From a virus, in IMG/VR virus record IMGVR_UViG_3300025769_000490, positions 1 through 31,912 of that record: a DNA stretch of 31,912 nucleotides. One strand, written 5' to 3'. The translations under genes were made by a program, and so were the position numbers. Below are positions 19,146 through 26,173 of the stretch, piece after piece. The notes below the pieces were generated by a model, which did no database searches, was not told where the DNA came from, and saw only the letters and a list, made by a program, of their open reading frames with translations. The stretch's first letter is position 1. Each line of letters begins with the position of its first letter.

Positions 19146-19598
19146 GTGCCAAGAAAAACGAACAGCAAACTGGAGTCGCCGCGTCGGGTTAGCCCGGCGC
19201 TGCGGCACTGGGCCGACAAGTGCGGCACCGCCAACATGATCGAGCTGGGCAACCGTATTCGCGAGAAACGCATTGCGTGCGGCATGACGGCTGGCGAAGC
19301 GGCGGCGCGTGCGGGTGACTACAGCGGCCGGACGTGGTGGCATTGGGAAGCGGGCGAACGCGCCATGGGCGTCGAGCAGCTGCTTGCGATTGCATCCGTG
19401 TTTGACTGCAGCGTGAACGAGCTGGTGGCCGACCTGTCGATCCCGGCGACGCACCCGATCAGCAAAGACCTGCAGCGTATCAGCATGCAGATGCTGCGCG
19501 AGTGGTGGCAGCTGCCGGAGCGGGAGCGCAACGCGGTCCGCCGGATCATTAAGACGCTGAAACGCCGCGAGGCCAAGAATTTCAGGACGCTGGACTAA
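19146..19598 (+). CDS. XRE-type HTH DNA-binding protein
   Basis: A 150-residue protein with GTG start nine bases after the SSB-like stop. Residues about 30-95 hold an XRE helix-turn-helix (ELGNRIREKRIACGMTAGEA, then WWHWEAGERAMGVEQLLAIA). A basic helical tail follows (ERNAVRRIIKTLKRREAK). It may regulate the replication operon or guide replication initiation; no enzyme motif is seen. Its TAA overlaps the ATG of the primase-helicase by one base, so the two are made together. Confidence 0.7.
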   Translation: MPRKTNSKLESPRRVSPALRHWADKCGTANMIELGNRIREKRIACGMTAGEAAARAGDYSGRTWWHWEAGERAMGVEQLLAIASVFDCSVNELVADLSIPATHPISKDLQRISMQMLREWWQLPERERNAVRRIIKTLKRREAKNFRTLD

Positions 19599-21853
19599 TG
19601 GGACACGCCGCCACGCACCTGCGTGAGCTATGGCGGAACGGGCTGCCCGACGGGCTGGTTATCGAGCTGCGCGACCTGACGAACGGCGCGGCTGCACAGC
19701 GGAGCGCGTGGCGCACGGCTGACGAACTGACCGCCATGCCGGACGCGCCCGCGACCGCCGCCACGCCGCAGTTTCTAACGTATAGCCTCGCCGCTATGCG
19801 GGATCGCGCGCCGGTGCGTAATGACACCGCGCAGCTGCTGCCCTGTGCGTGGGTGGACATTGACCTGATCGCCAAAGACGACAAGGCCAGCACCGCACCC
19901 GACGCGGCCCGTGCCGCCGCTGCGCCCGTGGTTGCCAAACTGGCTGCGCTGCCCATGCCGCCGTCGAGCGTGGTGTTCAGCGGGGCGGGGCTGCACGCAT
20001 ACTGGCGCTTGGACGACCCAGCGGACGACATGGCGTTAGTGCGCCGCGTGAACGAACACCTGGCGGGCGAGCTTGGCGGGGACCGCGCTGCGGTGAACCC
20101 TAGCCGCGTGCTGCGCCTGCCCGGCACGTACAACGGGCGCATGGCGGCCCCAGTGCTGTGCGAGCCGTGGCCCGACTATCCGCACTGGCAGCATGAATAT
20201 TACGTGGAAGACCTGCTGGACCTGCGCGCCGGTTGGGCGGGCGCACCTGCGCTTGCACCGGCTGCCCCGGCCGACCCGGCGGCAATGGCGCTGCAGGCGG
20301 CTGGCAGTGGCGGCCCTAGCGACCGTGACTGGGCGGCGTGCGAGCAGCAGATACGCCAAGGCGTGAACTGGCACAGCAACGGCTTGGCGCTGGTGGCGCA
20401 CTGGGTGCAGCGTGGCGTGCCGGACGAACAGATACACGCGCGGGCGGCCGAATGGACGCTGCCGGGGTACACGTACGACCAGACGACGCGTGAGGTGCAG
20501 GGGTTCATTGAAACAGCCGTGGCGCGCTGGGGCAGGCCCGGCGACCAGCTGCCCGCGAGCACCGACGCACCGGACGCCGCGCTGACGTATGAGCTATGGC
20601 GGGCAGAGCGCGCAGTGTTCGACGCGCGGAATGATCGCTACATCGACACGCGGACGGGCGAGTACATGTCGCACCGGTCGTGGGAGACCGTGAACCGGCA
20701 TTTCCACGACACGGAACTCACCGACAAAGGCGACGTGAAGCGGCTGCGCTGGATTGACCTCTACAAGGACGACCCGGAAAAAACGATTGTGCGCGGTACG
20801 GACGTGCTGCCCGGCGAGCCGATTATCTGCCGCGATGAACACGGCGTGGCGCGGCTGAACCTGTGGCGGCCGAATCCCGCAATCGAATGGGCGGCGGTTG
20901 GCGACCCGAACAGCGCGGCCGTGGCTAAGTTCCGGCAGCTGGTGCTGTTCCTGTGCGGCGACCGCCTGGACGTGGCTGATAACCTGCTGCATTGGATTGC
21001 GTGCAGCCTGTTCCGCGATGGCGAGCGCATGCGCTGGGCGATACTGCTAATCAGCGAGGAACGCGGCACCGGTAAGTCGCTGCTGGCCGACACGGTGCGT
21101 ATGCTCCACTACGGCCCGGCGACCGCTTCGTTGGAGACGCTGGGGCAGCTAACCGGCAAGTTCAACGGATGGTTGGCGGGTAAGTCGCTGGTGATCTGCC
21201 AAGAGACGCTAGACGTGTCGCAGTCCGCGTTTACGGCGCTTGAGTCGCTGAAGTCGTCGATCACGGAAGAGCAGACGATGATGGAACTCAAGGGCCGCGA
21301 CAAGCAGATGGTCCGGGCGCATCATAGGTTTTGGTTCAACAGCAACAGCGTGGGCGGCCTGCCCTTCGATGCAAACGAGCGGCGGATTTACCCGATTGTG
21401 TGCACGGCGGCCAAGGCGCTGCCGGACGACTTTTATCTGCAGTTCGCAATGTTCTGCAAAGCGTCGCAGGGCCTGGCCGATATTGCGGCGCACCTGCGCA
21501 CGTATGCGGACGCACCGTTGCCGCTGCGCGCCCCTGAGACGCCCGACAAGGCGCTGGTGCAGGAATCGCTAGTGCCGCCGTTTGTGGAGCTGCTGAACGA
21601 GCACGCCGACCAGCGGCCCGGTGCCGTGGCGATACGTGGGCAGGCCATGGCGGACATCGTGCGGCATCTAACGGGGCAGTCGTTCCGGGGTGGCGGGCAG
21701 GCCGAACAGCTGCGACGTGGCGGGTGGCGGCAGGAAAAAACGCGTATCGGTGGGACGCAAGCGCGGTTTTGGATACGCGGCGAGGGTGTTCCAGACGCGG
21801 TGGACGACAACCTGCGGGGCGAGATTGTGGACGGTGGGTCGCTCTGGGGTTGA
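19598..21853 (+). CDS. Primase-polymerase / SF3 helicase replication protein
   Basis: A 751-residue two-part replication enzyme. The N-terminal archaeo-eukaryotic primase-like domain shows the three motifs of the prim-pol/RepB fold: Val-Asp-Ile-Asp at 86-89 (metal-binding), SGAGLHAYW at 128-136, and SRVLRLPGTYN at 169-179. A PriCT-like linker follows at about 245-310. The C-terminal helicase (about 450-610) shows Walker A SEERGTGKS (486-494), a Walker B-like SLVICQE (530-536), a sensor WFNSNS (579-584) and the RRIYPI arginine region. It would unwind DNA and lay primers, and may also polymerise. It ends just before the repeat-rich block proposed as the origin. Confidence 0.88.
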   Translation: MGHAATHLRELWRNGLPDGLVIELRDLTNGAAAQRSAWRTADELTAMPDAPATAATPQFLTYSLAAMRDRAPVRNDTAQLLPCAWVDIDLIAKDDKASTAPDAARAAAAPVVAKLAALPMPPSSVVFSGAGLHAYWRLDDPADDMALVRRVNEHLAGELGGDRAAVNPSRVLRLPGTYNGRMAAPVLCEPWPDYPHWQHEYYVEDLLDLRAGWAGAPALAPAAPADPAAMALQAAGSGGPSDRDWAACEQQIRQGVNWHSNGLALVAHWVQRGVPDEQIHARAAEWTLPGYTYDQTTREVQGFIETAVARWGRPGDQLPASTDAPDAALTYELWRAERAVFDARNDRYIDTRTGEYMSHRSWETVNRHFHDTELTDKGDVKRLRWIDLYKDDPEKTIVRGTDVLPGEPIICRDEHGVARLNLWRPNPAIEWAAVGDPNSAAVAKFRQLVLFLCGDRLDVADNLLHWIACSLFRDGERMRWAILLISEERGTGKSLLADTVRMLHYGPATASLETLGQLTGKFNGWLAGKSLVICQETLDVSQSAFTALESLKSSITEEQTMMELKGRDKQMVRAHHRFWFNSNSVGGLPFDANERRIYPIVCTAAKALPDDFYLQFAMFCKASQGLADIAAHLRTYADAPLPLRAPETPDKALVQESLVPPFVELLNEHADQRPGAVAIRGQAMADIVRHLTGQSFRGGGQAEQLRRGGWRQEKTRIGGTQARFWIRGEGVPDAVDDNLRGEIVDGGSLWG

Positions 21854-22067
21854 TAAATGAGACGTTTGTCTCGAAAGTGGGACACGTTGGGACACGTTGG
21901 GACGGGTGTTGGGACGGCTGATTTTGGGGCCAAGTGCCTGTTATAGTTTCTTTTTTTTAAGTGGGACGGGTGGGACGGGTAATATAGTAGTAATGTGAGA
22001 AGGGACGGGCCTAACCGTCGCAAACCGATTTTTGACCCGTCCCAAGCGTCCCAAGTGTCCCAGCTGG
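21854..22067. other. GGGAC repeat block, candidate replication origin
   Basis: A 214-base non-coding gap between convergent genes. It holds about seven rightward GGGAC(A/G) copies (from 21879, 21889, 21899, 21911, 21963, 21972 and 22002) and three inverted GTCCC copies (near 22039, 22048 and 22057). An AT-rich tract with a run of T (21941-21960) sits between the groups, and a perfect hairpin GAGAC-GTTT-GTCTC is at 21859-21872. The spacing gives G-quadruplex-type GGG runs on both strands. Location right after the primase-helicase and iterated repeats around an AT-rich segment fit a vegetative origin. Confidence 0.5.
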
Positions 22068-22724
22068 TTATTCGGACGCAAACCCGGCGACGCGGTTGTA
22101 ACGGGGCAGCCGTCCGCACTGATTGGCGAACTCGGCGAGGTGGTGCGCTTCCGCCGCAATTTCGCTTCGCTCGCAGCCGATAGCGGTCCATTCGACGCAA
22201 TCAAACGACCAGTCGCCACGTTCCGGCGCTTTTAGCCGCGCCGCGATTTTACCGCGACCGATGTAGACGGCCTCGCCTTGGTCAGTGTAGCGATAAATCC
22301 CGGTCGCGTGTCGCGGGATATTGCCCGTCGCGTCATGTCGCCCCGATAGGCACCCGAAGCCCGGCACAAGGTCCGCATAAAACGCCATGCTGGACATGCA
22401 CCGCGACACACTCGCCCGCGTTCTAGGCTCGGCGGACGCCAACGCGGGGAAGTGTTGGGCCAGCTGCCGCGCCGCGACGACCCGGCCAAGGCTGGGCTTA
22501 GACTGACTTGCGGGCCTGACCTTCAACGCGTCGTCTTCCGCCCCGTCAAGGAACCGAAAGTAAACGCGCAGCGGCTCCGTTTCGTCGGCAAAAAAAGCTG
22601 CGTGCGTTTTATCGGCCAGACCGTATTGCTGGATGAACGCCGCGCTAAAGTTCAGCGTGTCGGCTGTGATAGTCACCTCGGGGCGGCGGCTGTGCGAGCG
22701 TAGCCGCAATCTGCGCAGCGTCAT
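22068..22724 (-). CDS. GIY-YIG nuclease-domain protein
   Basis: A 218-residue leftward protein. The C-terminal third carries a GIY-YIG nuclease domain: GIY at 142-144, YIGRGKI at 154-160 with Arg157, Arg163, and Glu192 in AAEAHHLAEFA, followed by a basic segment ending YNRVAGF. The N-terminal part (RPEVTITADTLNFSAAFIQQ) resembles a small domain found in several phage proteins of unknown role. A middle section (70-135) joins the two. It may cut foreign or recombining DNA. The start overlaps the end of the next upstream gene by four bases. Confidence 0.68.
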   Translation of the reverse strand: MTLRRLRLRSHSRRPEVTITADTLNFSAAFIQQYGLADKTHAAFFADETEPLRVYFRFLDGAEDDALKVRPASQSKPSLGRVVAARQLAQHFPALASAEPRTRASVSRCMSSMAFYADLVPGFGCLSGRHDATGNIPRHATGIYRYTDQGEAVYIGRGKIAARLKAPERGDWSFDCVEWTAIGCERSEIAAEAHHLAEFANQCGRLPRYNRVAGFASE

Positions 22725-22942
22725 GGCGTCGTCTCCGTTGGCCGCCTCGGCGCAGCGTCGTAAATGGCGTTCCCGTCGCGGTCTTCGACCAGTACGCAGG
22801 ACAGCCGTTCTTCGCCGTCCCAGTCGTCCAGAAAGTCGTCTGCAGCGGCCGTTGCCGCGTCTGGGTCTTCGTAACAGCCTATCTCGTAGAAACGGCCTGT
22901 AGCGGCCGTAAAATCGGCCAGAGCGGTATAGGGGCCGGGCAT
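22721..22942 (-). CDS. Small acidic hypothetical protein
   Basis: A 73-residue Asp/Ala-rich protein, ATG 22942, with its stop overlapping the GIY-YIG start (ATGA). It has FYEIGCYEDPDAATAAADDF and DWDGEERLSCVLVEDRDGN, a pattern of helix then beta hairpin. No family is recognised. The acidic character is shared with the neighbouring leftward products, which could hint at DNA mimicry, but this is only a compositional remark. Confidence 0.55.
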   Translation of the reverse strand: MPGPYTALADFTAATGRFYEIGCYEDPDAATAAADDFLDDWDGEERLSCVLVEDRDGNAIYDAAPRRPTETTP

Positions 22943-22946
22943 TGGC

Positions 22947-23231
22947 TCAGTGCTCCGTGTCGCCGCTGGGGGACAGCACGTCTTCGCCGTACTTGTCCGC
23001 CCAGTGGTCCGCCATTGGCACGGCGATGCGCTTCAGCCGCCACCACGTAAACGCGGCAGCCTGCACGCTCTCCGGCGCGTTCTCTATGTCGTCGAGATAC
23101 GGCTCTATCGCGTCTTCCAGTTGGTCGATTTGGTGAGACACCGCGTCCATGAAGTGGTGAAACGCGATTGCGTCTGTTTGCATGGAAACGGTGTTGCCGG
23201 TCGCCCGGATTCTTACAGATACGTCAGTCAT
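22947..23231 (-). CDS. Hypothetical protein, acidic helical
   Basis: A 94-residue protein from ATG 23231, with GGAG seven bases upstream; a longer open frame upstream is rejected because it lacks a ribosome site and overlaps the tiny membrane gene. The N-terminus is beta-like (TDVSVRIRATGNTVSM), followed by helices (HHFMDAVSHQIDQLEDAIEP) and WWRLKRIAVPMADHWADKYG. No known domain. It is part of the leftward accessory block that ends with GIY-YIG. Confidence 0.55.
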   Translation of the reverse strand: MTDVSVRIRATGNTVSMQTDAIAFHHFMDAVSHQIDQLEDAIEPYLDDIENAPESVQAAAFTWWRLKRIAVPMADHWADKYGEDVLSPSGDTEH

Positions 23232-23278
23232 GGTGTGCTCCAAAAAAGTTTTGCGGTGTTTCAAGTTGCGTCGGTTGG

Positions 23279-23374
23279 TCAGTACGGGGTCAGCGCCCAG
23301 ACGTGCAGCGACCAAACGAGCACGCCCAGCAATGCGCCGGTGCAGGCGGCCATAACGGCCCGGTGGGTTGTCAT
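23279..23374 (-). CDS. 31-residue membrane peptide
   Basis: A tiny leftward gene, ATG at 23374 overlapping the stop of the upstream gene (ATGA) and ending TGA at 23279-23281. The product begins MTTHRAVMAACTGALLGVLV and is mostly one membrane helix (about residues 8-28), closing with WALTPY. The ATGA overlap and clear hydrophobic design support it as real. Its function is unknown; small phage membrane peptides can act in superinfection exclusion. Confidence 0.5.
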   Translation of the reverse strand: MTTHRAVMAACTGALLGVLVWSLHVWALTPY

Positions 23375-23922
23375 GCTGCGGCCTCCACTGCGAACACCTC
23401 GGCGTGCGCTTCGCGGATCGCCTTGTCGGACAGCGAATAGAAAGCAGCGGCGTCCACTGTGCTGTAGATAAACAGGTTTACCCCGTCGCTTGTGCCTTGC
23501 ACGTAATGGTCGCCGCCTGCGCGGTTCACGTCATCAATGATTGCCCGTTGTTCAGCGCGTGTTTTTTCAGTGAACCACTGCGGCAAGTCTGCAAGGTCGA
23601 CATGCGTTTCAATTTCGCCGATAGGGAACGCGCCCAGGTCATCTGCTTCGCCGCCGTGATATTGGCTATCGAAGCGCCAGGATATGCGCACCAGGCATGC
23701 TTCCCCGAAGCGGTCTTCGTCGAATGTAGGGACGGCCAGGCCAAGGCCGCGCGCCCGCTCTGCAACACTTTGGTCGCAGTTGTGGTAATCCCAGTCGCCT
23801 TCAAACGGCAGATGCGTGTAGGCGTCGAGCGCGTCTTCGTGCGTCGTCTTATATTCAACGTTAGCGTCGGCGGCGGCAGTAACAATTTCGACCAGTTGGT
23901 CAATGCGGTCTTCGTAAGTCAT
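23371..23922 (-). CDS. Hypothetical acidic protein
   Basis: A 183-residue protein from ATG 23922, chosen because GGGAG lies eight bases upstream; ATG 23937 is open but contains that ribosome site. It is rich in Asp/Glu and aromatic residues: TYEDRIDQLVEIVTAAADAN, then FEGDWDYHNCDQSV, VDLADLPQWFTEKTRAEQRA and GDHYVQGTSDGVNLFIYS. No domain is recognised. It follows ardA and shares with it a conserved intergenic leader, so the two are probably co-regulated. Confidence 0.6.
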   Translation of the reverse strand: MTYEDRIDQLVEIVTAAADANVEYKTTHEDALDAYTHLPFEGDWDYHNCDQSVAERARGLGLAVPTFDEDRFGEACLVRISWRFDSQYHGGEADDLGAFPIGEIETHVDLADLPQWFTEKTRAEQRAIIDDVNRAGGDHYVQGTSDGVNLFIYSTVDAAAFYSLSDKAIREAHAEVFAVEAAA

Positions 23923-23986
23923 GTCATAAGCTCCCATGGTGCGGCGGGCCGCCGTAAAGACGGCACACCGGGTTGTTGTTGGTTGG
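23923..23986 (-). promoter_or_regulatory. Leader element copy 1 (repeated intergenic motif)
   Basis: Between ardA and the next leftward gene lies CCGGGTTGTTGTT (23968-23980), a GCCGT/ACGGC hairpin (23951-23964), and CTCCCATG (23931-23938), which is the GGGAG ribosome site when read leftward. The same order of elements stands before ardA. The hairpin has no T-tract and may act on translation or RNA stability. Confidence 0.4.
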
Positions 23987-24496
23987 TTAATTCGTGAAAA
24001 TGAAACAGCCGCTTGGGCCTTCCACTACGACGCAATCGGGGCGCAGGTCGCGGGCGTGGGCGTCATAGTCGAAGTAGTAGCGCGCCGGTTCTGGGACGTC
24101 GGTTAACAGCAACTCGTCTGCCCATTCGTCCGCAAAGTCTTGGAACGTGTCGGCCCTGTAACAGCTGTCCGCGCGGTCAACCACGCTGTCCAGCCCTTCG
24201 CCGTAAAACTCGCCGTAAGCAGCGGCAAAAGCGTCTTGGTCGTCGCAGCGCTCGACCGCCTCGACAAACTCGCACAGCGTCTCTATCGACTCATATTCGC
24301 CGAACGGGACAGACATATTGAGCGCCGTATCATAATCGGTGAAAAAGTGCTCCTCGGCTCCGGGCGCTGGGCTATCGGCAAGCACGGCCGCAATGGCGTC
24401 GCGCAGGTCGTCCGGGTCGGACGTTACCTCGACCCAGCGGCCGTGGAGATAGCCGTTATTGTATGCGGCGAGGCATGTCACAAAAGTCTTAAGCAT
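23987..24496 (-). CDS. ardA: ArdA-like antirestriction protein
   Basis: A 169-residue protein, close to the usual ArdA length (about 165), with GGGAG nine bases before ATG 24496. ArdA mimics B-form DNA and blocks type I restriction enzymes. Family features visible are YNNGYLHGRWVEV at 12-24, an AEEHFFTDYD segment, EYESIETL at about 67-74, a long acidic helical middle, and the closing YYFDYDAHARDL with GCFIF. Net charge is strongly negative. It stands in the leftward block next to other acidic proteins, consistent with early protection of phage DNA on entry. Confidence 0.85.
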   Translation of the reverse strand: MLKTFVTCLAAYNNGYLHGRWVEVTSDPDDLRDAIAAVLADSPAPGAEEHFFTDYDTALNMSVPFGEYESIETLCEFVEAVERCDDQDAFAAAYGEFYGEGLDSVVDRADSCYRADTFQDFADEWADELLLTDVPEPARYYFDYDAHARDLRPDCVVVEGPSGCFIFTN

Positions 24497-24566
24497 TGGT
24501 AAATTCTCCCATGTTGGTCGGTGCGACGCGCCGAGTTACCAGCGCGCCGGGTTGTTGTTAGTAGGT
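24497..24566 (-). promoter_or_regulatory. Leader element copy 2 (repeated intergenic motif)
   Basis: Before ardA the gap repeats the pattern of the next downstream gap: CCGGGTTGTTGTT at 24547-24559 (identical 13 bases), a GC-rich section with two CGCGCCG copies, and CTCCCATG at 24506-24513 giving the GGGAG ribosome site. The distance between the two conserved ends is 33 bases here and 29 in copy 1. Confidence 0.4.
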
Positions 24567-24905
24567 CTAGGCAGCGCTTTGTTGCGCCCTAAATCCCTCG
24601 ACCATTGCAAATTGCGCTTTCCACGATAGGCTGGTCCCGCGCCATGAGCGCAAGTTTCGAATGGGGCTAGAGTTGCCGTCGTTGCGGTCAATAAAGTCCG
24701 GTTCTTTACGAAAACGCGCCCTGTAAGCCTCGACAAACAGCATTGCGTCGCCGTCCTCTTCAACCCAGACAGTGCTGCCACTAGGCTGCCGATCATAATA
24801 GCTGAAGTCGCTAATCGCGTGGTCAATATTCAGCTCTACAAGCAATGACTCAGGAACACCAATCCAGCCGTGGCCTGCGTCGCTTGCGTAAATAAATTTA
24901 GTCAT
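24567..24905 (-). CDS. Conserved phage hypothetical protein
   Basis: A 112-residue protein from ATG 24905 (GGAG nine bases upstream). It has ASDAGHGWIGVPESLLVEL, SDFSYYDRQ, VWVEEDGDAMLFVEAYRARF and SPIRNLRSW. This order (D-x-GHGW, a SYY-type strand, EED-x-D, A-x-LF-x-EAY, a final SPIR) is seen in a widespread but unnamed family of small phage and plasmid proteins. No function is established. It is the first gene of the leftward accessory block. Confidence 0.65.
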   Translation of the reverse strand: MTKFIYASDAGHGWIGVPESLLVELNIDHAISDFSYYDRQPSGSTVWVEEDGDAMLFVEAYRARFRKEPDFIDRNDGNSSPIRNLRSWRGTSLSWKAQFAMVEGFRAQQSAA

Positions 24906-24962
24906 GTCGGTAACTCCGTTTTGTTGTGTGCACTATCCTTATGACATTCTGACACAACCGAC

Positions 24963-24993
24963 AACAAGTTTTGTTACCAGTTTTATCAATTGA
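24963..24993. promoter_or_regulatory. Palindromes in the divergent control region
   Basis: AACAAGTTTTGTT (24963-24975) is a 5-bp inverted repeat around GTT, and TCAATTGA (24986-24993) is a perfect palindrome touching the rightward -35. They sit between the leftward accessory block and the rightward HTH-terminase genes, the expected place for operators of the small HTH protein. Confidence 0.35.
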
Positions 24994-25017
24994 TTTTGCG
25001 TGACGTTCTGGCATAAT
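24990..25017 (+). promoter_or_regulatory. Rightward promoter for the HTH-terminase genes
   Basis: TTGATT (24990-24995) and CATAAT (25012-25017) are 16 bases apart. A start about seven bases after the -10 would fall at or next to the ATG at 25025, giving an almost leaderless message. No Shine-Dalgarno can be seen between the -10 and the ATG. Confidence 0.5.
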
Positions 25018-25867: not shown

Positions 25868-26173
25868 ATGACGACCTTCCGCAAAAACGACGCCGACAAG
25901 CCGCAATGGTCCGGCCTGGTCCGCCTGCCGGGCCGCGACGCGCTCCTGCGCACGATTTGGCGCAACGACCACGGAGCGGCCCAGTACGGCCGTGACAACT
26001 GGCGCAACGTACCGGACCCCGCGCGCTACAAAGACGCGCTGCTGCGCCATGCGTTCGAGCTGTGCGACGACGTCATTACCGACGAGCCGACACAGTGGGG
26101 CGACATCTGCCACGACGACGCTGTGGTCTGGAACGCGTTGGCCTTATCGGAGCTGCTACGCCATGGCGAATAG
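25868..26173 (+). CDS. DUF5664 / dATP-dGTP diphosphohydrolase N-terminal-like protein
   Basis: A 101-residue helical protein. It has LVRLPGRDALLRTIWRNDHG, AAQYGRDNWRNVPDPARYKD, ALLRHAFELCDD and HDDAVVWNALALSEL. This matches the order of conserved positions in DUF5664 proteins, sometimes called dATP/dGTP diphosphohydrolases: a G-x-x-x-Y-x-x-x-NW segment, then ALLRH, and a closing H-x-x-x-x-x-WN-x-LAL. It is shorter than many members. A nucleotide-pool role is possible but not proven. It sits between the terminase genes. Confidence 0.6.
   Translation: MTTFRKNDADKPQWSGLVRLPGRDALLRTIWRNDHGAAQYGRDNWRNVPDPARYKDALLRHAFELCDDVITDEPTQWGDICHDDAVVWNALALSELLRHGE

What the first reader, a model, noticed from the sequence alone, without database searches (positions are those of the whole stretch)
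21859..22062. G-quadruplex-prone GGGAC repeats around an AT-rich tract
On the top strand, GGG runs at 21879, 21889, 21899, 21904 and 21911 have loops of 2-7 bases, and those at 21963, 21968, 21972 and 21977 have loops of 2, 1 and 2, both fitting G-quadruplex rules. The bottom strand has four runs (22036-22061) with loops of 2, 6 and 6. The three blocks share the GGGAC core and two flank a T-rich segment directly after the primase-helicase gene. An origin whose iterons are also quadruplex units would be unusual.
Basis: partly seen in the sequence, partly recalled or inferred. Interest (0 to 1): 0.68.

Follow-up and report, generated by a model that had tools for sequence, protein, structure and literature searches.

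The report
Phage replication origin with iterons
The G-rich repeats are most likely docking sites (iterons) that tell a phage's own primase-helicase where to start copying its DNA; their G-quadruplex look is an accident of this phage's version of the docking word, because near-identical relatives use a different word that cannot form a quadruplex.

Summary
In detail: nine TGGGAC units (a tenth is degenerate) lie at 21878-22062 in three blocks, and three segments match the G-quadruplex rule. Dinucleotide shuffles of the whole window never give more than three TGGGAC units within 210 bp.

The quadruplex reading is not supported. Three relatives with the same replication genes keep the layout: two blocks of direct units 9-12 bp apart, AT-rich spacer, inverted block, right after the primase-helicase gene. 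The word differs: TGGGAC (window, L005), AAGAC(ACC) in L004, TGTGAC in L006. L004 and L006 have no quadruplex match. More distant DUF5906 initiators carry other repeats in the same place.

What tracks the word is the wing of a predicted C-terminal winged-helix domain. Window and L004 primase-helicases are 96% identical, yet 13 of 29 differences fall in residues 712-735. L005, with the same word, has none after residue 672. The upstream HTH protein is 100% identical in window, L004 and L006, so it does not set the word.

Best reading: a PICI/SaPI-type iteron origin in a temperate phage, read by its initiator's C-terminal domain. It is a new member of a known kind, plus a natural experiment that points to the wing. 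No binding or replication was tested.

The parts
19598..21853 (+). Initiator: primase-helicase (RepB_primase-like N-terminus, DUF5906/SF3-like helicase, C-terminal winged helix)
   Evidence: Pfam DUF5906 1.2e-18 at residues 484-596; weak RepB_primase; PHROG DNA primases; NrS-1 primase 6k9e 2.9e-7
21576..21805 (+). Region coding the predicted winged-helix domain (residues ~660-736)
   Evidence: AF2 topology H-b-H-H-b-b, pLDDT mostly 70-90; aligned structures are mostly winged helices, top one RFX5, Z 5.5
21731..21802 (+). Region coding the wing and following turn (residues 712-735), which varies with the iteron type
   Evidence: 13 of 29 amino-acid differences between window and L004 fall here; 20,000 random placements never exceeded 8 in 24 residues
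21859..21872 (.). Short palindrome GAGAC-GTTT-GTCTC just before block 1, kept in L004 and L005
21878..21919 (+). Iteron block 1: four units, spacing 10, 10, 12
21920..21961 (.). T-rich spacer between blocks 1 and 2, candidate unwinding element
   Evidence: 65% A+T over 21918-21960 where the surrounding kilobase has about 62% G+C
21962..21980 (+). Iteron block 2: two units 9 bp apart
21981..22034 (.). Spacer between blocks 2 and 3, with one degenerate unit at 22001-22010
22035..22062 (-). Iteron block 3: three inverted units, 9 bp apart; can pair with block 2 as a 19-bp arm (89%)
   Evidence: identity between window and L005 drops in the stretch holding the end of this block

Best explanation
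The segment is the replication origin of a temperate phage. About ten 9-12 bp iterons in three blocks, with an AT-rich tract between, bind the C-terminal winged-helix domain of the primase-helicase encoded just upstream. The bound protein would load as a hexamer, melt the AT-rich tract and prime the new strands. The word in the iterons is set by the wing of that domain; the GGG in this phage is one version of the word and quadruplex folding plays no required part. Shown: the array, its conserved layout and place, its changing sequence, and its covariation with the wing. Inferred: binding, melting, priming, origin activity, and the wing as the specificity element.
For: Array far beyond chance. 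Same three-block layout after the same gene in L004, L005 and L006 with three different words. Iteron arrays at p<=0.01 (200 shuffles) directly 3' of related initiators in Moraxella phages, Pseudomonas phages, E. coli/Proteus plasmids, Klebsiella phage S9a and Serratia phage JS26. Wing covariation: window vs L004 has 13 of 29 changes at residues 712-735; L005, same word, has none after residue 672. HTH 19146 is 100% identical in window, L004 and L006. Winged-helix topology predicted. Two iteron sets flanking an AT-rich region immediately 3' of the initiator is the documented PICI origin, functional in a plasmid test (PMC6092414), and the SCCmec helicase Cch2 binds direct repeats downstream of its operon, with its C-terminal domain also assayed on the repeats (PMC7581432).
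Against: No binding, melting or replication data. Only four members of the close family have a complete gene, and covariation rests on essentially one close pair (window/L004), with L006 too diverged to single out the wing. A single recombination event could have brought in wing and origin together by linkage. Several related initiators show no clear array 3' of the gene (ZCEC13, PEi21, Rhizobium phage, Redjac). The structure matches are weak by Foldseek and middling by Z. Profile comparison did not link this winged helix to those of the plasmid and Casjensviridae initiators.
Confidence: 0.78

Rival explanations
1. The repeats work as G-quadruplexes: on unwinding, three segments fold and recruit or regulate the replication proteins.
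For: Three segments match the rule, more than shuffles give; L005 keeps all three.
Against: L004 and L006 keep the array and its place but lose every match; block 3 is inverted, so the G-rich strand is not the same one throughout; related initiators use repeats without GGG.
Confidence: 0.05
2. The operative feature is a large stem-loop made by blocks 2 and 3, as proposed for plasmid pRN1, rather than the iteron sequence.
For: Single-strand DNA folds of blocks 2-3 are more stable than shuffles in all four (z -3.7 to -6.1). pRN1 has an essential ~100-nt stem-loop 54 bp after its primase-helicase gene, with changing sequence and kept structure (PMC4234260).
Against: Opposed copies of one unit give such a stem automatically. 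Block 1, outside the stem, changes its word in step with blocks 2 and 3, which a stem alone does not demand. In L006 the arm is only ~14 bp.
Confidence: 0.1
3. The repeats are operators for the HTH_31/Xre protein at 19146-19598 or another regulator.
For: An HTH gene lies next to the initiator gene; pRN1 likewise pairs a repressor gene with its initiator gene.
Against: The HTH protein is 100% identical in window, L004 and L006, which have three different words, and 99% in L005. The array lies after, not before, the operon.
Confidence: 0.04

Closest known systems
PICI/SaPI replication origin (pri-rep-ori)
   Same: Origin immediately 3' of the initiator gene; two iteron sets flanking an AT-rich region (PMC6092414); SaPI Rep reads iterons through its C-terminal domain (stated in PMC7581432).
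   Different: Here in a temperate phage with terminase, portal and integrase genes, not a satellite; primase and helicase are fused; other iteron word. PMC6092414 stated in 2018 that no other known bacterial replicon has this layout.
Phage NrS-1 primase-polymerase and DUF5906 initiators
   Same: Sequence match of the helicase region to NrS-1 primase, residues 413-604, E 2.9e-7; hexameric ring described for NrS-1 (PMC7102993).
   Different: NrS-1 has a 'Tail' of a fold reported as novel, not a winged helix; only the helicase region matches by sequence.
Plasmid pRN1 ORF904 replicon
   Same: Repressor gene, primase-helicase gene with a C-terminal winged helix, essential region just 3' of the gene, inverted arms (PMC4234260).
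   Different: pRN1 authors describe a stem-loop and no iterons as the origin.
PLE RepA replicons of Vibrio cholerae
   Same: Initiator and origin alleles covary and work only as matched pairs (PMC8263062).
   Different: RepA_N family with ~30-bp semi-palindromic iterons and an N-terminal DNA-binding domain.

Membership tests
PICI/SaPI-type iteron origin | Lies immediately 3' of the replication initiator gene | tested here: met
   First unit 25 bp after the stop codon at 21853
[quoted passage not shown]
   Block 1 and blocks 2/3 flank the T-rich tract at ~21920-21961
PICI/SaPI-type iteron origin | Initiator binds the iterons through its C-terminal domain | tested here: inconclusive
   Covariation of the C-terminal wing with the iteron word; no binding data
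PICI/SaPI-type iteron origin | Initiator gene plus this segment replicates a plasmid | not testable with these tools
   needs a plasmid replication test
PICI (the whole element) | Satellite dependent on a helper phage, without a full set of virion genes | tested here: not met
   Terminase large subunit, SU10-type portal, structural proteins and integrase present
DUF5906 primase-helicase | DUF5906 domain above the curated cut-off | tested here: met
   68.2 bits against a cut-off of 27.6
Functional G-quadruplex element | Quadruplex-forming runs conserved in relatives with the same genes | tested here: not met
   Present in L005, absent in L004 and L006
RFX-like winged helix (reads DNA with its wing) | Fold match and wing-in-major-groove binding | tested here: inconclusive
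   Best aligned chain is RFX5 (Z 5.5, 73 residues, 3.1 A) and RFX1 scores Z 4.2, within the range of common arrangements

The most novel reading that the evidence does not exclude
The specificity of a primase-helicase for its origin is carried by a ~24-residue wing, read RFX-style, while the recognition helix and the GAC core of the iterons stay fixed; phages of this group exchange wing and origin together and so switch replicon identity with an otherwise unchanged initiator.
Probability: 0.5. Interest if true: 0.6.

Novelty: new member of a known kind. Interest (0 to 1): 0.42.

Why it matters
It resolves the G-quadruplex idea with comparative evidence and places the phage's likely origin. It also shows that the origin layout described in 2018 as peculiar to PICIs occurs in full phages and small plasmids with DUF5906 initiators. 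The window/L004 pair is a ready-made natural experiment on how an initiator's DNA-binding domain changes its target word, testable with two small proteins and three short DNAs.

Tried and rejected
Searches for more close relatives found no new complete copies: the complete members came from the first scan; alignment, L006 and DNA-pattern scans of viral contigs added none, and two scans of genome contigs gave nothing. Relatives of a virus record are not drawn by the genome search. Phage DNA similar to 21000-25000: none. The first 7-mer survey missed the Pseudomonas phages because its low-complexity filter dropped TGTTGGG-type words; the corrected survey is. In E. coli genomes there was only one weak match to the plasmid initiator, so no second wing/iteron series. 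Moraxella phages Mcat1 and Mcat4 differ in the C-terminal domain yet share the word, so differences there do not always mean a new word. Profile comparison of the winged helix with other DUF5906 C-termini: no support beyond a short G..R.W match. GC skew did not mark an origin. Papers on G-quadruplex iterons in phages or plasmids: nothing to the point. Ubeda 2007 and 2012 on SaPI origins are not held, so SaPI details rest on citing papers.

Full report
What is there. The window is a 31,912-base virus record that carries a terminase large subunit, an SU10-type portal, structural proteins and a tyrosine integrase, so it is a temperate tailed phage. After the stop codon (21853) of a 751-residue primase-helicase with a DUF5906 helicase region come ten copies of a ~10-bp unit, nine of them starting TGGGAC and one AGGGAC. 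They form block 1 (21878-21919, four units), block 2 (21962-21980, two units) and, on the other strand, block 3 (22035-22062, three units), with a degenerate unit at 22001. Nine TGGGAC in 210 bp compares with a maximum of three in 300 dinucleotide shuffles; three G-quadruplex matches lie here of six in the window, against a shuffled mean of 0.81 for the whole window.

The quadruplex is incidental. Three IMG/VR relatives carry the upstream replication genes in the same order with a complete initiator. L005 has the same word and the same matches. L004, with an initiator 96% identical, has CAAGACACCT-type units; L006 has TGTGACGCGT-type units. Both keep direct units mostly 8-11 bp apart, a spacer, and inverted units, at the same place, and neither has a quadruplex match in 800 bp. 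What is conserved is the arrangement and a GAC core; the preceding bases change (GG, AA or GA, GT).

The arrangement is widespread. In 25 regions 3' of related initiators, arrays significant at p<=0.01 by shuffling are present in Moraxella phages (TTCACAC; CCTGCAC), Pseudomonas phages (TGTGTTG), E. coli and Proteus plasmids (GGTTACA), Klebsiella phage S9a and Serratia phage JS26, and weaker ones in others; four (ZCEC13, PEi21, the Rhizobium phage, Redjac) show none in 600 bp. For chivirus BPS1 the array lies further downstream and exceeded all shuffles with an 800-bp stretch. Only the window, L005 and Pseudomonas phage pAN, whose word also holds GGG, match the quadruplex rule.

What reads the word. 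Window and L004 initiators differ at 29 of 751 residues; 13 of these lie in residues 712-735, and random placement of 29 changes never put more than 8 in any 24 residues in 20,000 trials. Window and L005, which share the word, differ at 39 aligned places, none after residue 672. Nucleotide identity between window and L005 stays at 95-100% through the origin and falls off only in the stretch that contains the end of block 3. Between window and L004 it falls at the wing (63%) and again from block 1 on, with a nearly identical stretch of ~70 bp between them. L006 is near-identical over the N-terminal 344 residues and diverges through helicase, C-terminus and origin, a larger exchange of the same kind. 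The HTH protein upstream is 100% identical in window, L004 and L006, so it does not determine the word. All this points to the initiator's C-terminus.

That C-terminus is predicted as a winged helix: helix, strand, helix, helix, then two strands with the wing, pLDDT mostly 70-90 for the domain alone with a four-sequence alignment. The variable stretch is the two-stranded wing and the turn after it; the putative recognition helix (GQAEQLRRGG) is the same in window, L004 and L005. Foldseek gave no significant match; among re-aligned chains, many are winged helices and the top one is RFX5 (Z 5.5), with RFX1 at 4.2. RFX1 reads the major groove with its wing (PMC4333399), which would fit, but these Z values are not proof.

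Mechanism proposed. Initiator molecules bind the iterons through this domain, assemble over the array, open the AT-rich tract, and the helicase and primase parts start replication. Binding, melting and priming are inferred from the PICI/SaPI replicons (PMC6092414), the SCCmec Cch2 helicase (PMC7581432) and NrS-1 (PMC7102993). Blocks 2 and 3 can pair as a stem in all four phages, like the pRN1 stem-loop (PMC4234260), but opposed copies of one unit do this automatically.

Limits. Four members only; one close pair carries the wing argument; wing and origin may have moved together by linkage rather than by selection; Moraxella phages Mcat1 and Mcat4 show that a changed C-terminal domain can keep the same word. 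Nothing was tested at the bench.

Noticed in passing
window 25868-26173 (+): Short ORF matching PF18909, dATP/dGTP diphosphohydrolase N-terminal domain (E 4.9e-11), a nucleotide-pool enzyme; no other nucleotide-modification gene was looked for systematically.
   Followed up: partly
window 23987-24496 (-): ArdA-type antirestriction protein (E 7.8e-32), also in L005 at 90% identity.
   Followed up: no
window 21859-21872: Palindrome GAGAC-GTTT-GTCTC kept in window, L004 and L005. It resembles the L004 iteron core (AAGAC/GAGAC) and may be a remnant of an older word in the window lineage.
   Followed up: no
window ~20630 (initiator codon ~345) against L006: Sharp drop in identity inside the initiator gene: N-terminal primase part near-identical, helicase, C-terminus and origin diverged, a module border.
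   Followed up: partly
L021, L022, L032 (small E. coli and Proteus plasmids): 8-17 kb plasmids with DUF5906 initiators have 8-10 copies of GGTTACA in opposed arrays after the gene; two related records carry a phage tail tape measure gene.
   Followed up: no
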